Shown here: positions 4,410 to 14,000 of the stretch, piece by piece | Position numbering within the stretch: the first letter of the stretch is position 1 | How the letters are laid out: each line of letters begins with the position of its first letter | Source: Chloroflexota bacterium | Lineage (GTDB): Bacteria; Chloroflexota; Anaerolineae; Anaerolineales; DRMV01 | Reading direction: 5' to 3' | Assembly (NCBI GenBank): GCA_011322445.1 | Contig: DRMV01000009.1 | Span: forward strand, 1 to 59,446 | DNA: 59,446 bases | Made by a program: the position numbers and the translations under genes | The notes under the pieces: generated by a model | What the model saw: only the letters and a program-made list of their open reading frames with translations | The model's database searches: none | What the model was told of the DNA's origin: nothing

Positions 4410-5177
4410 CTACGGCGCGGGCACCGTCGCGTCAAAGTTCCAGAACCAGTTGTAGGCATAGTAGCCTGTGGTCGCGCTTTCCAACCGAATGGCAATACGG
4501 TCCACATTCGCCAGTTGCGACGGGATGCTAAACGTCGTCGTGCTCAGGTTGCCGCTGGCATCGGTGGTGACCGTACCGACCACGTACCCGCCCACGCCGT
4601 ACGTGCCGTAGTAGTTCATGTACACCGTGTAGGTATCGTTAGCCGGGAAGTTGTGCGGCTTGATGGTCACACTGCTATTGCGCGCGACCGCGGTGATGTA
4701 GAAGTAAGGATAGCCCGGATAAGGCAGCGGCGTGGCCGTCGGCGCGGGGGTCGCGCTCGGGGCAGGCGTGGCCGTGACGGCCGTGTCATTGTTCCAGAAC
4801 CAGTTGTAGGCATAGTAGCCCGTCGTGGGGCTTTCCAACCGAATGGCGATGCGCACCTGCCCCGCCAGTTGAGCAGGCACACTGAAGGTTGTGTTGCTCA
4901 ACGTGCCGCTGGCGTCGGTGGTGACCGTGCCCACAACGTACCCTCCCACGCCATATGTGCCATAATAGTTCATCCGCACCGTAAAAGTGTCATTCGGCGG
5001 GAAGTTGTAGGGGGAGATCGTTACACTGGTATCGCGCTGCACCGCGGCGATGTAGAAATACGGATAGCCGACATAACCAGGCACCGCGCCCTGCGCCGGG
5101 AACCACGATTGCCCCAACGCCATCACCACGCCCAGCACCAGGCCGACGATGCCTTCCAACAGTCTTCGCTTGGTCAT
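4410..5177 (-). CDS. Secreted protein with two near-identical ~95-residue repeats
   Basis: A start at 5177 with AAGGAGGG upstream gives a signal peptide (KRRLLEGIVGLVLGVVMALGQ... ending near AQGA). The mature protein is two copies of one unit: GYPYFYI-A-V-R--SVTI-P-NFP-NDT, then MNYYGTYGVGGYVVGTVTTD, then RIAIRLES-TTGYYAYNWFWN. A short Ala/Thr/Pro linker separates them. The repeats are almost identical in the central block. The beta-rich, Tyr/Gly/Thr-rich pattern suggests tandem extracellular sandwich domains, perhaps adhesive or structural, but I do not recognise a named family. A candidate promoter lies at 5233-5261. Confidence 0.8.
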   Translation of the reverse strand: MTKRRLLEGIVGLVLGVVMALGQSWFPAQGAVPGYVGYPYFYIAAVQRDTSVTISPYNFPPNDTFTVRMNYYGTYGVGGYVVGTVTTDASGTLSNTTFSVPAQLAGQVRIAIRLESPTTGYYAYNWFWNNDTAVTATPAPSATPAPTATPLPYPGYPYFYITAVARNSSVTIKPHNFPANDTYTVYMNYYGTYGVGGYVVGTVTTDASGNLSTTTFSIPSQLANVDRIAIRLESATTGYYAYNWFWNFDATVPAP

Positions 5178-5232
5178 TGCAAACCCTCCTTCAAGACAGA
5201 AAAAGGGGGAAGCCCCCGACACGACTATCCTA

Positions 5233-5261
5233 AGCATACATGAAAAGCGCTAAAGGCGCAA
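5233..5261 (-). promoter_or_regulatory. Candidate promoter of the tandem-repeat secreted protein
   Basis: Read on the minus strand, TTGCGC (5256-5261) and TATGCT (5233-5238) are separated by 17 bp and lie 55 bp upstream of the start. A GGGGG/CCCCC hairpin (about 5206-5218) sits in the untranslated leader. Confidence 0.45.
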
Positions 5262-5291
5262 GCACCTTTTGACACGTCCGAAACCAATTCC

Positions 5292-5319
5292 TTGACAAAT
5301 GACGCTTCTGCCGTAAAAT
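5292..5319 (+). promoter_or_regulatory. Promoter of the aroF-tyrA operon
   Basis: Consensus TTGACA (5292-5297), a 16-bp spacer and TAAAAT (5314-5319). The leader-peptide ATG at 5328 lies only 8 bp past the -10 box, so the transcript would begin at or just before that ATG and be leaderless. The tRNA-Leu promoter at 43591 has the same TTGACAAAT start, the same spacer and the same TAAAATT end. Confidence 0.75.
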
Positions 5320-5327
5320 TGAGCGCA

Positions 5328-5414
5328 ATGAATACTCCCCTTCCCACTCACGCGTTTGGCTTTTATTACGCCCAGGGTAACGGCCCGCTGCCGCAGGCCG
5401 TTCGTGGCGCGTGA
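5328..5414 (+). CDS. Leader peptide of the aromatic amino-acid attenuator
   Basis: A 28-codon frame opens with ATG at 5328 and stops with TGA at 5412. Its centre reads HAFGFYYAQ: two Phe (TTT at 5355-5357 and 5361-5363) and two Tyr (TAT, TAC at 5364-5369) within five codons. It precedes DAHP synthase and prephenate dehydrogenase, enzymes leading to Phe and Tyr. A ribosome short of charged tRNA-Phe or tRNA-Tyr would stall here, which is the classical logic of leader-peptide attenuation (pheA, trp). No Shine-Dalgarno is present and the predicted transcript start lies almost on the ATG, so initiation would be leaderless. Confidence 0.72.
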   Translation: MNTPLPTHAFGFYYAQGNGPLPQAVRGA

Positions 5415-5456
5415 GCAGGGAAAACCCCCTGAGCGTCCGGGCGAGGTCTGACGGCC
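5379..5456 (+). promoter_or_regulatory. Alternative RNA pairings of the attenuator (1:2 and 2:3)
   Basis: Segment 1 AACGGCC (5379-5385) can pair perfectly with segment 2 GGCCGTT (5396-5402). Segment 2 can instead pair with GACGGCC (5450-5456, one G-U pair), which runs across the loop and into the first bases of the 3' arm of the terminator. A ribosome stalled on the Phe/Tyr codons would hinder segment 1 and free segment 2 to form the antiterminator. A ribosome reaching the stop at 5412 would cover segment 2 and let the terminator form. A small CAGGG/CCCTG hairpin (5416-5431) lies between. Confidence 0.6.
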
Positions 5457-5471
5457 TCGCCCTTTTGCTTT
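5439..5471 (+). terminator. Attenuator terminator upstream of aroF
   Basis: GGGCGAGG (5439-5446) and CCTCGCCC (5455-5462) form a perfect stem with an 8-nt loop, followed directly by TTTTGCTTT. It is a canonical intrinsic terminator placed between the leader peptide and the aroF ribosome-binding site. Confidence 0.85.
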
Positions 5472-5519
5472 AACGCCGTCTTGCCAGGCCGACCCATTTC
5501 CGCAGTTTGGAGGTGCCCC

Positions 5520-6566
5520 ATGATGATCGTAATGCACGCCCACGCCAGCGAAGAGGATGTGCAAACCGTCCTCGAGGCCATCCGCCGCCACGGGTTCCAG
5601 CCCCACATCTCACAGGGGGAAGAACGCGTGGTCATCGGCGTGGTGGGGGAAGCGCGACGCGCCGAGCCCGATGCCTTCTTGCGGCTGCCAGGGGTGGCGC
5701 GCGTGGTCCCCCTTTCCCGCCCTTACAAACTTGCCTCGCGGGAATTCCACCCCACGGATCGCGCAGTGATGGTTAGAGGGGTGCGCATTGGCGGCGGCGG
5801 TGAGCCGGTTTTCATCGCCGGGCCATGTTCGGTCGAAAGCCGCGCCCAGTTGCTCGAAACCGCCCATGCCGTCAAGGAAGCCGGCGCGCAAATTCTCCGC
5901 GGTGGCGCTTTCAAACCCCGCACTTCGCCCTACTCCTTCCAGGGGCTGGGCGAGCGCGGCCTGGAACTGCTCGCGGAGGCCCGGGAAGCCACTGGCCTGC
6001 CCGTCGTCACCGAGGTGATGTCGCCCGAACTGGTGCCGCTGGTCGCCCGCTACGCCGACATGCTGCAAATCGGTGCCCGCAACATGCAAAACTATGCCCT
6101 GCTGCGCGCCGCGGGCGCCAGCGGCAAACCCATCTTACTCAAGCGCGGCATGAGCGCCACCCTCGACGAACTGCTGCTCGCCGCCGAATACATCCTCAGC
6201 AGCGGCAACGAAAACCTGGTGCTGTGCGAACGCGGCATCCGCACTTACGAAACCGCCACCCGCAACACCACCGACATCAACGCCATCCCTGCGCTCAAAG
6301 CACGCACCTCGCTGCCCGTGATTTTAGACCCCAGCCACAGCACCGGCCACTGGGCGTATGTTTCTCCCGTGGCACGAGCAGCCATTGCCGCCGGTGCCGA
6401 CGGGCTCATCGTGGAAGTGCATCCGCACCCCGCGGAAGCCCTCTCGGACGGCGCGCAATCGCTCAAGCCGGAACGCTTCGCCCGCCTGGTCACCGAGGCG
6501 CGCGCCATTGCGCAAGCCTTGGGCCAGGAAACCCTGCACGAGGTGCCCCATGTGGCCGCCGACTGA
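5520..6566 (+). CDS. aroF: 3-deoxy-7-phosphoheptulonate (DAHP) synthase, type I-beta
   Basis: Condenses phosphoenolpyruvate and erythrose-4-phosphate, the first step of the shikimate pathway. Residues 1 to about 70 form the small ferredoxin-like regulatory domain seen in Thermotoga-type enzymes ([17 protein letters not shown]...). The barrel follows with [45 protein letters not shown] and ILDPSHSTG, which carry the PEP-, phosphate- and metal-binding residues. Length (348) is typical. GGAGG sits just upstream of the ATG at 5520. It is the first structural gene after the attenuator and overlaps tyrA, so both respond to the same signal. The N-terminal domain suggests added allosteric inhibition by Tyr/Phe, as known for this class. 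Confidence 0.95.
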
Positions 6567-7461
6567 AGCCGACGACGGAGAAGCCGACTTTGCGGCTGAC
6601 TTTCCGTTGCACCGCGCGCGCGTGGCGATCGTGGGGCTGGGGCTAATCGGCGGCTCGCTGGCGCTGGCGCTGCAAGGCCAATGCGCCGCCCTGCTGGGGG
6701 TGGACCCCAGCCCCAAAGCCCGCGCGCTGGCACAGGCCAGCGGTGCATTGGACGCCATCTCAGACGACCCCGCGGCGCTCCTCCCCGCCGCCGACGTGGT
6801 CATCCTGGCCGCCCCTGTGCGCACCATCCTGGCACTGCTCGACGCTTTACCTTCCTGGCAGCCCAGCCCGGCCATCGTGCTGGACGTCGGCTCGACGAAA
6901 ACCGCCATCACCACCCGCATGGCCGCGTTACCACCGCGTTTCGACCCCATTGGCGGGCACCCGATGGCAGGAAAAGAACATGGCGGGTTTGCCCACGCCG
7001 AGGCCAACCTGTTTCGCGACGCGCCTTTCGTCCTCACACCTCTCTCCCGCACCACGCCGCGCGCCCGCGCCTTTGCTCTGACGCTGGCCGGCGCTTTGCA
7101 GGCGCGGCCGCTCTGGCTCGACGCCACCACCCACGACCGCCATGCCGCGGCCATCAGCCACCTGCCCTACCTGCTCAGCCTCGCCCTCACGCTGAGCACC
7201 CCCCCAGAAGCCGCCCGCATCGCTGGCCCCGGCTTTCGTTCCACCACCCGGCTGGCCGCTTCCCCGCCCCACATGATGGCCGACATCCTCACCACCAACC
7301 GCCGCCCTGTGCTGGAAGCCCTGCGCCATTTCCGCACCACGCTGGACGCTCTGGAAACCGCCCTCGCCAACGACGACCCCCGTGCCTTGAAAGCCCTGCT
7401 GGCCGAAGGGCCGCCCCAACGACACCGCCTGTTGACCACGCCGCCCCCCGGCGAGCCTTGA
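6550..7461 (+). CDS. tyrA: Prephenate/arogenate dehydrogenase
   Basis: Oxidatively decarboxylates prephenate (or arogenate) towards tyrosine. The Rossmann motif [17 protein letters not shown] lies near residues 25-41. [15 protein letters not shown] and the [16 protein letters not shown] block are characteristic of the TyrA family. The ATG at 6550 overlaps aroF by 17 bp, with GAGGTG upstream inside aroF. The 303 residues contain no C-terminal ACT domain, so feedback control of this enzyme may be weak and control would rest on aroF and the attenuator. The first 20 residues are an acidic extension outside the core. Confidence 0.93.
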
Positions 7462-7523
7462 CCCGTGACACCCTGAGGCCCAGCGTTGCCCGAATGTACG
7501 GCCTAATTAGTGAAGTTTGTCAC

Positions 7524-7552
7524 TTGCTAAATGTGCCCGCATGTGCTATTCT
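7524..7552 (+). promoter_or_regulatory. Candidate promoter of the HypA-like gene
   Basis: TTGCTA (7524-7529), a 17-bp spacer and TATTCT (7547-7552), 66 bp upstream of the ATG at 7619. It separates this gene from the aroF-tyrA operon. Confidence 0.5.
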
Positions 7553-7618
7553 CAAGACAGAAACGATAACTCCCTCTGCCCCGCGCGGGCAGCGGCTCTT
7601 CACCTCGGAGGTGCCAGA

Positions 7619-7975
7619 ATGAACACCCAAATCAAGTCTCGTGAAGCCAGTTTGGTGCAGCGGCTGATCGAAGCAGCCTGCCAACAGGCCAACGGCAAAC
7701 CGGTGCTGGAAGTCAAAATCGCCGCGGCCAAATGCGCCGGGCTGGATGAAAGGCTGGTGCGGTTCTATTGGGACCAATACGCCCCCGAAACCGTATGCCA
7801 GGGCGCGCACATCCTCTATCGCGAAGTACCTTTCATCCAAAAGTGCCCTTACTGCGGCCACACCTTTGCCTCGCGCAAACAGAATGTGCCGTGCCCTCAA
7901 TGTCGCGCCGGCCACACGGCCACACTCGTGGGCGACGATTGCGCCATCGTGGAAGACATCACCACAGCAAACTAA
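7619..7975 (+). CDS. HypA/HybF-like zinc-ribbon protein
   Basis: A 118-residue protein. The central part (GLDERLVRFYWDQYAPETVCQGAHILYRE) followed by CPYC-GHTF...CPQC and LVGDDCAIVEDI reproduces the layout of HypA, the nickel-delivery and zinc-ribbon protein of [NiFe]-hydrogenase maturation. The N-terminal Met-His-Glu nickel site of HypA is missing: the protein starts MNTQIKSREAS. Nickel transfer in the usual way is therefore doubtful. No hydrogenase or other hyp gene is visible in the window. It may be a paralogue with another metal or regulatory role. GGAGGT lies 6 bp before the ATG, and a strong terminator follows. Confidence 0.75.
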   Translation: MNTQIKSREASLVQRLIEAACQQANGKPVLEVKIAAAKCAGLDERLVRFYWDQYAPETVCQGAHILYREVPFIQKCPYCGHTFASRKQNVPCPQCRAGHTATLVGDDCAIVEDITTAN

Positions 7976-8003
7976 CCACCTCCACGGCCTCCTCACTCCA
8001 TCC

Positions 8004-8048
8004 CCCAGGTCCCGCCTGTCCAGCGCACGGCGGGACCTGGGCGTTTTT
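8004..8048 (+). terminator. Intrinsic terminator after the HypA-like gene
   Basis: A perfect 13-bp stem (CCCAGGTCCCGCC with GGCGGGACCTGGG), 12-nt loop, then GCGTTTTT. Confidence 0.88.
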
Positions 8049-8052
8049 CCCA

Positions 8053-8061
8053 TGCTATAAT
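8053..8061 (+). promoter_or_regulatory. Extended -10 promoter of the alpha-2-macroglobulin gene
   Basis: TGCTATAAT (8053-8061) is an extended -10 box 38 bp upstream of the start. No -35 box is evident. Confidence 0.5.
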
Positions 8062-8098
8062 CTCCATGACGGTTCGCGTCTTTCCCTGGGAGGTTCCA

Positions 8099-11000
8099 AT
8101 GTCCATATTCCGCAGGCTTATCATGGGGGCCGTGCCGGCGTTTCTGCTTCTCGCCGTTGCAGCCTGCGGCCCGGCAACGCCTTTGCCTTCCATCTCTGCT
8201 GCTGCGACCTCGGTGGCTGCGGCGCCGACCCTGCTCCCTTTCACGCCTACCCCCACCGGGCTGGTGCTGGTGCAGGCTTCGCCGCCCAAGGGCGCCGCGC
8301 TGCCGCTGCAAGGGGTGCTTACCTTCACCTTCAGCCGCCCTCTTGACCCTGCCAGCGCGCCTCGCGCCTTCCAATTGCTTGACGCCACCCAGCAGCCGGT
8401 CGCGGGCCGCGTGGATTTCCCCAACGCCCGCACCCTCCGTTTCACGCCCGCCCAGCCGCTGACGCCTGAGAGCACCTACACCGCGGTGTTCGACGCCAGC
8501 CTGCGCGCCGCCGACGGCACCCCACTCGCAGCCCCTCTCCGCCTGGCCTACACCACCGAGGCTGCCTTTGCCGTGCTGCGCGTCTTCCCCGCCGAAGACA
8601 GCGAAGACGTGCCAGTGAAAAGCGACATCACCGTGGTGTTCAACAAGCCCGTCGTGCCGCTGACCACGCGCGAAGCCGCCACCCCGCTGCCCCTCAAAAT
8701 TTCCCCCGCCGTGGAAGGCAACGGCGCATGGATCAGCACGGCCATCTACACCTTCCACCCCGACCAGCCCCTCACCAGCAACACGACCTACACCGTCACC
8801 CTGCCAGCAGGGGTGCAAACGCTGAGCGGCGAAACGCTCTCCGCGCCAGTGACGTGGTCTTTCCACACCCACGCGGCGCGAGTCCGCCGCGTCAGCGCCG
8901 ACGGCTGGGGCATCGAAGAAGATCAGCCCCTGGACTACGCCCGCCTTGACGCCGCCCTGCAAATCACCTTCAGCCAGCCGATGGACAAAACCACCACCGA
9001 GCAGGCCGTGACGCTGCAGGCGGAGGAGGGGGCGCTTACACCGCCGATGAAAGCCCGCTGGAACAAGGACAGTACCCGCTTGACCCTTGTGCCCCAGGGC
9101 CTCTTCAGCCCCGGCGCGACTTACACCCTCACCATTGCCGCGACGGCCCACAGCCAGGACGGTGGCACATTGGGGCGCGCCTACCGCTTTGCTTTTCACA
9201 CCGCCGGGCTGCCGCGCGTGCTGAACACGTTTCCCGCCAACGGCCAGACCCAACAAGGCTACGATCCATGGGTCCAGGTGGAGTTCAACACCTACCCCGA
9301 CCCCAAAAACGTGACCCAATACATCCGCATCTCGCCCACTCCCCCCACCGTCAAGGTTCAGGTTTACGATCGTCGCCTGTTCATCGGCTCGCTGGAAGCG
9401 GGCACCCCTTACACCATCACCCTGCTGCCCGGCCTGCCCGACCGCTTCGGCCAGACGCTAAAAGAAGCCTACACCTTCCGCATCACCACCGCCCATCTGC
9501 AACCGCGTGCCGAGTTGCTGCTTCCCTCCGAACCGGCCGTGGTACGCGCCGACGGCCCCCAAACCGTCTGGCTACGCTATGCCAACCTGGAAAGCGCCAC
9601 CCTCAGCCTCTACCCGATGGCGGATGCCACGCTGATAGCCTCCCTCAACCGCGGGGCAGCCTGCTCACCGCAGGGGCAGCCGCTGGGTATCTTGCAGCCG
9701 GAAGCCGTAGCCACCGCCACCCGCGACGCCACCCACGCCCTCCAGTTCTCCCTCAGCCGCCTCAACCGGGGCAAGCCGCTCCCCCCAGGCGCCTACTGCC
9801 TCATCCTTCACCACGAACCCCACCAGAAATACGACCGCGACCGCGCCTACTGGCTGCTGGTTTCCACCGATAACCTCACCCTGGAAACCGGCCCTGCCGA
9901 CGCTTTGGTGTGGGCCACCGACCTCGAGGCAGGCGCGCCCCAACCCGACCTGCCGGTGCGCCTTTTCACCGCCGATGTCGAAGACTATCCCCCCACGCTA
10001 AACGACGCGGGCATCGTCACCACCGACGCCAACGGGGTGGCTTCCTGGCCCAACCTGCCCCACGCGGCCCGCTTCGCCCTCGTGCACACCGCCGACCGCT
10101 TCGCCTTCACCGATGCGCACTGGGGCGCGGCCAACTTCCAGCAGCCCCTGGCCGCTTCCTACTGGGACGCGGCTTACACCCGCCCCCACGACCTCACCGC
10201 CCTCATCTACACCGACCGCCCCCTCTACCGCCCCGGTCAAGAAATCTTCTTCAAAGGCCTGGTGCGACGCAACCACGACCTGCATTACACCCTGCCCGAA
10301 GCCACAGCCGTATGGGTTAGCCTTTCCCACGAGGGCAAAATCATCAGTCAGCAACGCCTGCCCCTCTCGACGCTGGGCACTTTCCACGGCTCGGTGCTGC
10401 TGGCCGAGGAAGCCCCGCCCGGCACCTACACCTGGACCATCCGCCTCGAGCCCAAAGGCGACGCCATCGGCTGGGGGAGCGTGCGGGTAGCGCTCTATCA
10501 CAAACCGGTTTTTGAAGTGCACCTCACGCCCCACGTGCCTGCGCTCATGCCTGGCGGCCGCACCACAGTGGACCTCACCGCCACTTACTACGCCGGCGAC
10601 GCAGTGACCCACGCGGCGGTGAACTACCACGTGGAAGTGCAGCCTTACACCTTCCGCCCGCCTGAAGCCTGGGCCGACTACACCTTCCAGCAAACCACCG
10701 CCTGGGCATGGGACTTTTACTTCTCTGGCGGCGCACCGAGCGCCCAGGCGACCGAGCAACCGCCCCAGAGCGGCAAAACCACCACCGACGCCCAGGGGCA
10801 CGCGGTCATCCCCGTGCAGGCGCCCATCGCCCTGCAAAGCGGCGACCAGCAACTCGCCGTGTGGACTTCCGTGACCGACGCGGGCGGCAACACTGCCGAC
10901 GGGCACACGACCATCGTGGTGCGGAAAAGCAACCTTTACGTCGGTCTGAAAACCGAAGGCTGGACGGGCATCGCGGGCCAGCCCACCACCATTCACCTGG

Positions 11001-14000
11001 TGGTGCTCGACCCCAACGGCCGCCCCTTGCCCCATTACCCCCTCACGCTGAACGTGGAAGAAGAACGCTGGCACAGCGTGCAGCAGCGCGACGCCAGCGG
11101 CATTCTGCACTGGAAAGACACCCTGGAAACCCTCCCCGTGACGACCTTCGACAGCCTCACCACCGACGACAAAGGGCGCGCCACGGTCACCTTTACGCCC
11201 GACCACAGCGGCACGTATCGCTTCACCGCTGCCGCCCGCGATCGCGACGGCCGCCGCCGCGAGGCTTCCTTGCGCTTCTGGGTTGCAGGCAAAGAAGCCC
11301 TGCTGTGGGCACAAGGCGAACACACCCTCCCACTCATCCCCGACAAATCGTCCTACCACCCCGGGGGAACCGCCCACCTGCTGGCGCCCCAGCCTTTCGG
11401 CAAGCCAACTTACGCGCTGCTCACCGTGGCGCGGGAGCACATCTTCACCCACCAGGTCGTGCGGCTCGACCAGCCCAACACGCTGCTGAACATCCCCCTC
11501 ACGGCCGACATGGCGCCGGTGGTTTACGCCTCACTGCTCACCCTGCGCCCGCCCGAAGGCGACCGTCCGGCCGATTTCCGCAGCGCCATCGTGCGGCTGC
11601 CGGTGGCGTTAGACGCCCAACAACTGGAAGTCACCCTCACCCCCGACCGCGACCACCTGGCCCCCGGCGAAACGGCCCGCTTCACCATCACCACCCGCAC
11701 CCACGACGGCCAGCCCGTGCCCGCCGAGGTTTCCCTCGCCCTGGTCGACAAAGCCATCTACGCCCTCGCCCCCGACACTTTCAGCCTGCTCCAGCGGCTT
11801 TACCCGATGTATGGCCTGCGCGTTGCCACGGCGCTGGGGTTGGTGAACGATCTGGAAGCCTACGACGCACGCGTCCGCAAATGGCTGCCGGAAGGGGAAG
11901 GCATGGGCAGCGGCGGGGGCGAAAAAGGCGCCGACCTGGGCGGCGTGATCCCGGTGCGGGAGACCTTCCGCGACACCGCCTACTGGCGGGCCAACGTCCA
12001 GACCGACGCGCAAGGGCGCGCCACCGTCAGCATCACGCTGCCCGATAACATGACCACCTGGGTGATGCGCGCCCGCGCCATCACCGCCGACACGCGCGTG
12101 GGCACTGCCACTGCTGAAATCACCGTCAACCGGCCCTTCTTCGTGCGGTTGCACACGCCCGCCTTCTTCACCGGCGGCGACCAGCCCCGCATTCAGGCCG
12201 TGGTGCACAACGCCACCGACACCCCCCTGCAAGCCACCGTGCGCCTCACCCGCGCCGACGGCCTCACGTTGCAAAGCCCGGTCGAGCAAACAGTCACCGT
12301 ACCCGCCAAAGGGCAGGCCGCGGTGGCCTGGCAGGCTTCCGTGCCCCTCACCGCCACCCGCGTCGACCTGGTGGTAGAAGCCCGCGCCGGCAACTACCGC
12401 GACGCCACCCGCCCCATCCTGACCACGCTGCCCGACGGCGGCATTCCGGTCTATCAGTTCACCACCGACGAAATCGTGGGCACCGCCCACGCCCTGACCC
12501 AGGCCGCCGAAATCCACGAAACCGTGTTGCCGCCCGCCGACGCCGCCGATGTGACCCTCCGGCTGGATGTGGCCGCCTCGCTCACCGCCGGCCTGGCCCA
12601 AAGCCTGAGCGTGGGCCAGCCGCCGGAAAGCCATTGCACCTACGCCTGGGCCGACAACCTGCTCGCCAACGCGGCCGCAGCCCAGGCCTTCCAGGCCCTC
12701 GGCGCGACGCCCCAAAACAAAGCCCAACTGGACACCGCCGTCCAACAGGCCGTGCAGGCGCTGGAAGCCACCCAACACCCCGACGGCGGGTGGGGCTGGT
12801 GCCCCCAGGGCGATACCGCCCCCCTGCCCACGGCCTACGCCACCCTCGCCCTCTCAGAAGCCGCCCGCGCCGGTTACACCACCGACCAGCGCGTGCTGCG
12901 CGCCGCCGCCGACAACCTCTACCTCGCCCTCACCCGCCAGCCCAAAAGCCCTGCCCCAGGCAAAACCTTCTCCGCCGCGGCCCAGCCGCTCTCGCTGGAA
13001 AGCCGCGCTTTCCTCATCGATACACTCGTCCGGCTGCCGTTCCGCTTCCCGGGGACGCTAACCACGGAAATCTACGCTCTCAACAAGAAAGCCGCCGACC
13101 ACGGCATGGGCATCACCGGCTGGGCACTGCTGCTACACGCCGCCCAGGCCACCGGCATGGGCGACGCCTTCACTACGCCCATCCTGCGGCGGGTGGAAAA
13201 CACGGTGGTGCTTTCCGCCGCCGGTGCCTACTGGGACCACAGCCCTGGCCCCGGCTGGATGTGGGGCACCGACACCGCCACCACCGCCCTGGCCCTGGAC
13301 GCCCTGCTGGAAACCGATCCCCAAGCGCCCTTCCTGCCCAATGTGGTGCGCTGGCTGATGCAAAACCGCGATGCCCGCGGCCGCTGGGCAGGCGGGCAGA
13401 ACACGGCTGTTGCGGTGCTCGCCCTTGCGCACTGGGTACGCTTCAGCGGCGAAAGCCACCCCAACTACCAGGCCACCATTGCCCTCAACGGCAGGCAGGT
13501 TGCCGCTTTGAACATCACACCCCAAAGCAACCTCGCACCGCAGCACTTCACCTGGCACGCCGCCGACCTCCGCCTGGGCGCGCCCAACGACCTCGCCATC
13601 CGCCGCACCGCCGGGCCGGGGACGCTCTACGCCAGCGCCTACCTGACCACCGTACTGCCCGCAGGCCAATTGCGCGCCCGTGCCGACGGCGTGGCGGTTT
13701 CCCGCGCTTACTACCTGCTGAACGACCTGAACACGCCCGTCACCACCTTCCCGGTGGGCGCGCTGGTGCAGGTGCGGCTCACGGTGGTCGCCCCCCACGA
13801 CTTGCGGCATGTGCTGCTCACCGACTACCTCCCCGCGGGCATGGAAGCCCTCGACCCCAACCGCACCTGGAAGCCCGAAGCCACCGACGCCTTCTCGTGG
13901 GAAGATTTCCGCCGCTACGGTTGGGGTGGCTGGTACTTCTACCATCGGGAAGCCTACGACGAACGCGTCGTCTTCTCAGCCGACTTCCTGCCCGCGGGCG

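What the first reader, a model, noticed from the sequence alone, without database searches (positions are those of the whole stretch)
5292..5519. Complete leader-peptide attenuator for Phe/Tyr upstream of DAHP synthase
Seen: promoter, 28-codon leader with F-G-F-Y-Y, mutually exclusive 7-bp pairings (5379/5396/5450) and a perfect terminator with T-run before aroF. All parts of a classical attenuator line up, with stall codons 10 nt before segment 1. Attenuation of a type I-beta aroF-tyrA operon by a mixed Phe/Tyr leader in this lineage is, to my knowledge, not a textbook case.
Basis: partly seen in the sequence, partly recalled or inferred. Interest (0 to 1): 0.75.

Follow-up and report, generated by a model that had tools for sequence, protein, structure and literature searches.

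The report
Phe/Tyr leader-peptide attenuator, Chloroflexota-wide
A short stretch of DNA in front of the first gene of aromatic amino-acid synthesis encodes a tiny peptide rich in phenylalanine and tyrosine whose translation very probably decides whether the genes behind it are switched on; the switch type is long known, but here it runs through the Anaerolineae and patchily through other Chloroflexota, where I found no earlier report of it.

Summary
Window 5292-5519 holds a promoter, a 28-codon leader ORF (MNTPLPTHAFGFYYAQGNGPLPQAVRGA) starting 8 nt after the -10 box (probably leaderless), two competing 7-bp pairings and a terminator ahead of aroF (type I-beta DAHP synthase) and tyrA. All four genus-mates with an aroF of the window's type have the same leader. 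In the rest of the family and order the same attenuator stands in front of aroH-aroF, so in the window's genus aroH was lost from between leader and aroF. Across 2.0 Mb of strand-bases, 63 of 63 F/Y-rich leader-plus-terminator hits lie upstream of aroH or aroF; a similar scan gives none in 200 shuffles. Segments 2 and 3 covary. All 56 leaders examined carry both Phe and Tyr codons, in nearly equal numbers (164:158). The mechanism is classical ribosome-mediated attenuation. C. glutamicum aroR-aroF is a close precedent with a Phe-Tyr-Phe leader, and an Acholeplasma aroF motif is another. So this is a new, probably convergent, Chloroflexota member of a known kind; it is absent from Rfam. No RNA or reporter data were available, so regulation itself is inferred.

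The parts
5292..5319 (+). sigma-70-type promoter: -35 TTGACA, 16-nt spacer, -10 TAAAAT; predicted start of transcription about 5326-5327
   Evidence: 11 of 12 matches; the same promoter type lies at the same place in the genus-mates. Start site inferred, not mapped.
5328..5414 (+). leader peptide ORF, 28 codons, MNTPLPTHAFGFYYAQGNGPLPQAVRGA; ATG 8 nt after the -10 box, so probably a leaderless start
   Evidence: the F/Y run is kept in-frame in genus-mates although N-termini and lengths differ (26-30 codons); F/Y density 5.75 per 8 residues in frame against 1.75 and 1.6 in the other frames over 57 leaders
5355..5369 (+). regulatory (stall) codons TTT GGC TTT TAT TAC = F-G-F-Y-Y
   Evidence: relatives have FGYYY, FGFYYFAF, FFAFYYY, YYYFF
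5379..5385 (+). segment 1, AACGGCC
5395..5402 (+). segment 2, AGGCCGTT, shared by the 1:2 (anti-antiterminator) and 2:3 (antiterminator) helices; lies inside the leader ORF
   Evidence: covariation with segment 3
5406..5436 (+). possible inner antiterminator helix GGCGC (5406-5410) with GCGTC (5432-5436)
   Evidence: read by eye; both halves recur in most genus-mates; not tested statistically
5439..5462 (+). intrinsic terminator stem-loop GGGCGAGGTC-TGAC-GGCCTCGCCC (10 pairs)
5450..5457 (+). segment 3, GACGGCCT, in the loop and 3' arm of the terminator
5463..5473 (+). T-rich tail TTTTGCTTTAA of the terminator
5520..6566 (+). aroF: 3-deoxy-7-phosphoheptulonate (DAHP) synthase, type I-beta with N-terminal ferredoxin-like domain
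   Evidence: PF00793 1.8e-82, PF18152 2.2e-20; NF006421, TIGR01361
6550..7461 (+). tyrA: prephenate dehydrogenase; start codon overlaps the end of aroF, so probably one operon
   Evidence: PF02153 2.8e-26, PF20463 5.3e-20

Best explanation
It is a ribosome-mediated transcription attenuator that senses charged tRNA-Phe and tRNA-Tyr and controls aroF-tyrA. Transcription starts next to the leader ATG and a ribosome follows RNA polymerase closely. With both amino acids plentiful, the ribosome runs to the stop codon (5412-5414), covers segment 2, and the terminator forms. When Phe or Tyr is short, the ribosome stalls at F-G-F-Y-Y, keeps segment 1 and the base of the 1:2 hairpin out of reach, segment 2 pairs with the newly made segment 3, the terminator cannot form and aroF-tyrA are transcribed. 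Shown: the parts, their conservation, covariation of 2:3, dependence on reading frame, and their position at aroH or aroF. Inferred: start site, termination, stalling, and response to Phe and Tyr.
For: (1) All parts are in the right order and register. (2) The same architecture stands in front of aroF in G001, G002, G003 and G005 of the same genus, and in front of aroH-aroF in G004, the rest of the family and nearly all the order: about 37 genomes, the clear exception being G054 (a few read by eye). (3) 48 of 100 loci against 0 of 200 dinucleotide shuffles. In 2.0 Mb of strand-bases the scan found 63 distinct F/Y leaders: 58 before aroH or aroF, the other 5 also 195-1391 nt upstream of aroF in loci that were cut there. 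(4) Segment 2:3 covariation in 25 leaders: 87% standard pairs against 82% when the segment-3 blocks are permuted (0 of 1000) and at most 53% when slid; 11 two-sided changes against 4.9 (1 of 1000). (5) The 1:2 region folds better than shuffles, mean z -1.2. (6) Modelled states: 2:3 is the best structure only with a ribosome stalled in the F/Y run and polymerase at 5452-5458, never with no ribosome or with one at the stop codon. (7) The terminator has no + strand gene to end: the upstream gene is on the - strand. (8) No Rfam riboswitch or T-box there.
Against: No transcript or reporter data. At equilibrium the complete transcript always prefers the terminator, even with the stalled ribosome, so the switch must be kinetic, as is usual for attenuators. 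For the window alone the duplex energy of the segment 2 region with the terminator is no better than shuffles (z = +0.8); support comes from the family. The T-run is interrupted (TTTTGC). The covariation test used a structure-blind alignment, but the helix was defined from one of its sequences.
Confidence: 0.93

Rival explanations
1. The attenuator works, but answers to one of the two amino acids only (Phe alone, as reported for C. glutamicum AroR, or Tyr alone); the other codons are passengers.
For: In C. glutamicum the Phe-Tyr-Phe leader responds to Phe and not to Tyr (review PMC11802643).
Against: All 56 leaders carry both residues, 164 Phe and 158 Tyr in the best 8-residue windows; F and Y replace each other at the same place between genus-mates; the operon usually serves both branches (aroH-aroF-tyrA).
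Confidence: 0.25
2. A T-box, riboswitch or protein-bound RNA element does the sensing, and the short ORF is incidental.
For: T-box-like and SAM-riboswitch matches occur elsewhere in this family's loci (L008, L010).
Against: No Rfam match on the + strand of the leader; F/Y density is confined to one reading frame; leader sequence is variable except for F/Y codons and paired segments.
Confidence: 0.03
3. A constitutive premature terminator plus a chance ORF: no regulation.
For: The terminator wins at equilibrium.
Against: 0 of 200 shuffles; 63 of 63 leader hits at aroH/aroF; covarying antiterminator.
Confidence: 0.02
4. The leader also senses Trp, since DAHP synthase feeds all three aromatic amino acids.
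For: Trp lies in or near the F/Y run in 18 of 56 leaders and in several leaders of other Chloroflexota classes.
Against: No Trp codon in the window's leader; no trpE N-terminal domain was found in G000.
Confidence: 0.02

Closest known systems
aroR leader peptide of the aroF operon, Corynebacterium glutamicum (Neshat et al. 2014, as described in PMC11802643; also PMC4046766)
   Same: Short leader with a Phe-Tyr-Phe run in front of a DAHP synthase gene; ribosome-mediated attenuation
   Different: Other phylum; here the leader has a longer mixed F/Y run, mostly in front of aroH-aroF-tyrA, with competing segments of its own; no sequence comparison with aroR was made here; aroR answers to Phe, not Tyr
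uORFC-13-1 motif upstream of aroF in Acholeplasma (PMC8632094)
   Same: Predicted uORF with Phe codon(s) just before a terminator upstream of aroF
   Different: Only Acholeplasma and environmental sequences; Phe only; described as an RNA motif with an RBS
E. coli pheL-pheA and trpL-trp attenuators (Rfam Phe_leader RF01859, Trp_leader RF00513)
   Same: Working principle: a stalled leader ribosome chooses 2:3 over 3:4
   Different: No Rfam match at the window's leader; the weak RF01859 match in L025 is outside the leader; different peptide, target gene and phylum
Hypothesised aroF-tyrA attenuation in E. coli (Camakaris 1980, cited in PMC8632094 and PMC2659441)
   Same: Same pair of enzyme activities downstream
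   Different: From general knowledge: different DAHP synthase type, and E. coli aroF is chiefly controlled by TyrR

Membership tests
Ribosome-mediated (classical) transcription attenuator | Short leader ORF with codons of the amino acid(s) made by the operon | tested here: met
Ribosome-mediated (classical) transcription attenuator | Intrinsic terminator between leader ORF and first structural gene | tested here: met
Ribosome-mediated (classical) transcription attenuator | Mutually exclusive 1:2 / 2:3 / 3:4 pairings placed so that a stall frees segment 2 and a ribosome at the stop codon covers it | tested here: met
   window alone not significant by duplex energy
Ribosome-mediated (classical) transcription attenuator | Readthrough rises when the cognate charged tRNA is short | not testable with these tools
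   needs RNA or reporter data
Rfam Phe_leader RF01859 | Match to the covariance model at or above the gathering score | tested here: not met
T-box leader RF00230 | Match to the covariance model at the leader | tested here: not met
C. glutamicum aroR attenuator | Common descent of leader and operon | not tested
   no aroR sequence compared; same function, unrelated phylum, so convergence is assumed, not shown

The most novel reading that the evidence does not exclude
An ancient attenuator of Chloroflexota that acts as an OR-gate: shortage of either Phe or Tyr (in some lineages also Trp) opens the entry enzyme of the pathway, often from a leaderless leader peptide that lets the ribosome start as soon as the RNA appears.
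Probability: 0.4. Interest if true: 0.6.

Novelty: new member of a known kind. Interest (0 to 1): 0.45.

Why it matters
It puts classical leader-peptide attenuation into a large, mostly uncultured phylum. A 2010 genome-wide survey said leader-peptide systems had not been shown outside Proteobacteria and Actinobacteria before its own Firmicutes case (PMC2965389). It gives a clean, large natural series for asking how two-amino-acid sensing, leaderless starts and antiterminator covariation evolve, and supports a new RNA family entry.

Tried and rejected
Rfam at gathering and permissive thresholds: nothing fitting at the leader; the one weak match (SdsR, 25.8 bits, - strand) is below its gathering score and taken as chance. 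Trp leader before trpE as a positive control in eight order genomes: none found. A Phe/Tyr leader before the aroH-pheA operon of the window's genus: none seen directly upstream of aroH. Plasmid collection: no match. Forbidding helices by hard constraints gave structures that make no sense; those three lines are not used. The automatic scan missed some true leaders (L007, G014, G020, G033, G046), which were read by eye from the printed sequence, so counts are lower bounds. L097 (Clostridiales) was left out as a weak hit.

Full report
What was claimed, and is it there? All are present at the given coordinates. The terminator stem-loop is far more stable than shuffles (z = -4.85) and the whole leader folds at z = -3.8. 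Two small corrections: the T-run is interrupted (TTTTGC), and the ATG (5328) lies 8 nt after the -10 box, so the leader is probably translated from a leaderless RNA. The genes behind it are a type I-beta DAHP synthase with its ferredoxin-like domain and a prephenate dehydrogenase whose start overlaps the end of aroF. The gene upstream lies on the other strand, so the terminator has nothing to terminate except the leader RNA.

Close relatives. A protein search found an aroF of the window's type in four genus-mates: G001, G002, G003 and G005. All four have promoter, short leader, competing segments and terminator in the same order. The leaders differ (MNIPALLLHAFGYYYRPISNGPLPPAVRGA, MMTAHAFGFYYFAFHNGLQPLAVRGA, MLRNPFFAFYYYASPNGLIPLAGGGA, MNLPSVARRYYYFFASGHGLWSLAGRGA) but each keeps the F/Y run in frame, with Phe and Tyr replacing each other.

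The wider group, and what happened in this genus. In the rest of the family and order aroF follows aroH, a chorismate mutase, and no leader was found between them; the attenuator stands in front of aroH. By my count about 37 genomes of the order have it; G054 is the clear exception and several others are cut by contig ends or have no aroF of this type. G004, placed in the same genus, has the order leader-aroH-aroF. The window's genus has its chorismate mutase elsewhere, as aroH-pheA, and no chorismate mutase of the other common family (PF01817) was found. The simplest reading is that aroH was lost from between leader and aroF and the attenuator stayed; this is inferred from the distribution, no tree was built.

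How specific is it? Among 100 loci with at least 1 kb upstream of an aroF-type gene, 48 have an ATG-initiated ORF with at least 5 Phe/Tyr in 8 residues ending next to a terminator, against 0 of 200 dinucleotide shuffles; the next seven commonest residue pairs all involve F or Y. In 2.0 million strand-bases of fetched DNA the scan gave 63 distinct leaders: 51 labelled as before aroH, 7 before aroF, and 5 that the automatic label missed because those loci end at the aroF start; these 5 lie 195 to 1391 nt upstream of aroF. Most of that DNA was fetched because it lies near aroF, so the count shows specificity of position, not a genome-wide rate. The F/Y density is confined to the reading frame (5.75 per 8 against 1.75 and 1.6). 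All 56 leaders examined have both Phe and Tyr, in near-equal numbers (164 and 158), and 18 have Trp in or near the run; in 23 of 47 leaders with a promoter and start the start codon lies 6-10 nt after the -10 box. Given that many F/Y residues, finding both in each leader is not surprising in itself; the even ratio is what speaks for sensing both.

Structure. In an alignment of 25 leaders made without structural information, segment 2 pairs with segment 3 in 87% of cells, against 82% when segment-3 blocks are permuted between sequences (0 of 1000 permutations reach it) and at most 53% when slid by 1-3 columns; two-sided changes number 11 against 4.9 (1 of 1000). The related genome G004 shows it plainly: GCCGAGGG with CCCTCGGC where most have GCCGTTGGC with GCCAACGGC. 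Other lineages use another sequence, GGTTGCTTCACG with CGTGGAGCAACC, in the same architecture. The 1:2 region also folds better than shuffles on average (mean z -1.2). Folding of the growing transcript, with a ribosome as a block, gives the 2:3 helix only for stalled ribosomes and polymerase at 5452-5458, and never for no ribosome or a ribosome at the stop codon; at full length the terminator wins in every state, so the choice must be kinetic. For the window alone the duplex energy test is not significant.

Distribution. Named hits and one search are nearly all Chloroflexota (bins labelled Anaerolineae, Ardenticatenaceae/Ardenticatena, Caldilineae, Thermoflexales and one Chloroflexaceae); exceptions are one bin labelled Deltaproteobacteria (L086) and one Calditrichota (L095). 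In a sample of 40 more Chloroflexota, the four of the same class all have it and the other classes are patchy, about ten of 36 including one weak hit, sometimes directly before aroF and with Trp added. Whether that is one old element or several gains is open.

What is known. C. glutamicum has the aroR leader with Phe-Tyr-Phe before aroF; there Phe but not Tyr limitation acts. Acholeplasma has a Phe-coding uORF motif before aroF, and aroF attenuation was hypothesised for E. coli and listed for Shewanella. Searches of the held papers for Chloroflexi or Anaerolineae with attenuator or leader peptide found no earlier report, but subscription papers, among them Lopatovskaya et al. 2010 and Neshat et al. 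2014, could not be read. Rfam has no such family at the window.

Verdict. It works like, and meets the sequence-level definition of, a classical ribosome-mediated attenuator. Novelty lies in phylum, breadth and the balanced Phe/Tyr run, not in the principle.

Noticed in passing
G000 (window genome), whole genome: No anthranilate synthase N-terminal domain (trpE, PF04715) and no acetolactate synthase over the cut-off were found, although the assembly is 96% complete; the organism may not make Trp or branched-chain amino acids. Genus-mate G003 does have trpE.
   Followed up: partly
L132 (G000:C32:116000-128000), around 5108-8752: A second DAHP synthase gene lies beside a chorismate-using enzyme of the isochorismate/anthranilate synthase type and a menA-like prenyltransferase (by eye), which suggests a separate supply for menaquinone; no leader looked for there.
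   Followed up: partly
L008, 478-768, - strand; L010, 336-474, - strand: A T-box-like element (68 bits, under the gathering score) and a SAM riboswitch (85 bits) in family-mates, so T-boxes or riboswitches and leader peptides occur side by side in this group.
   Followed up: no
L095 (Calditrichota), about 172 to 61 nt before aroF: Leader MASTERLNHFFGFYFGYYYWTQ with a terminator whose arm has a further, nearly perfect copy upstream (long antiterminator): the same device outside Chloroflexota.
   Followed up: no
L021, L027, L028, L029: Some order members carry two aroF-type genes in tandem behind aroH.
   Followed up: no
window 13150-13228: ARAGORN calls a tRNA with a four-base anticodon inside a 2022-codon ORF (alpha-2-macroglobulin-like by eye); almost certainly spurious.
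   Followed up: no
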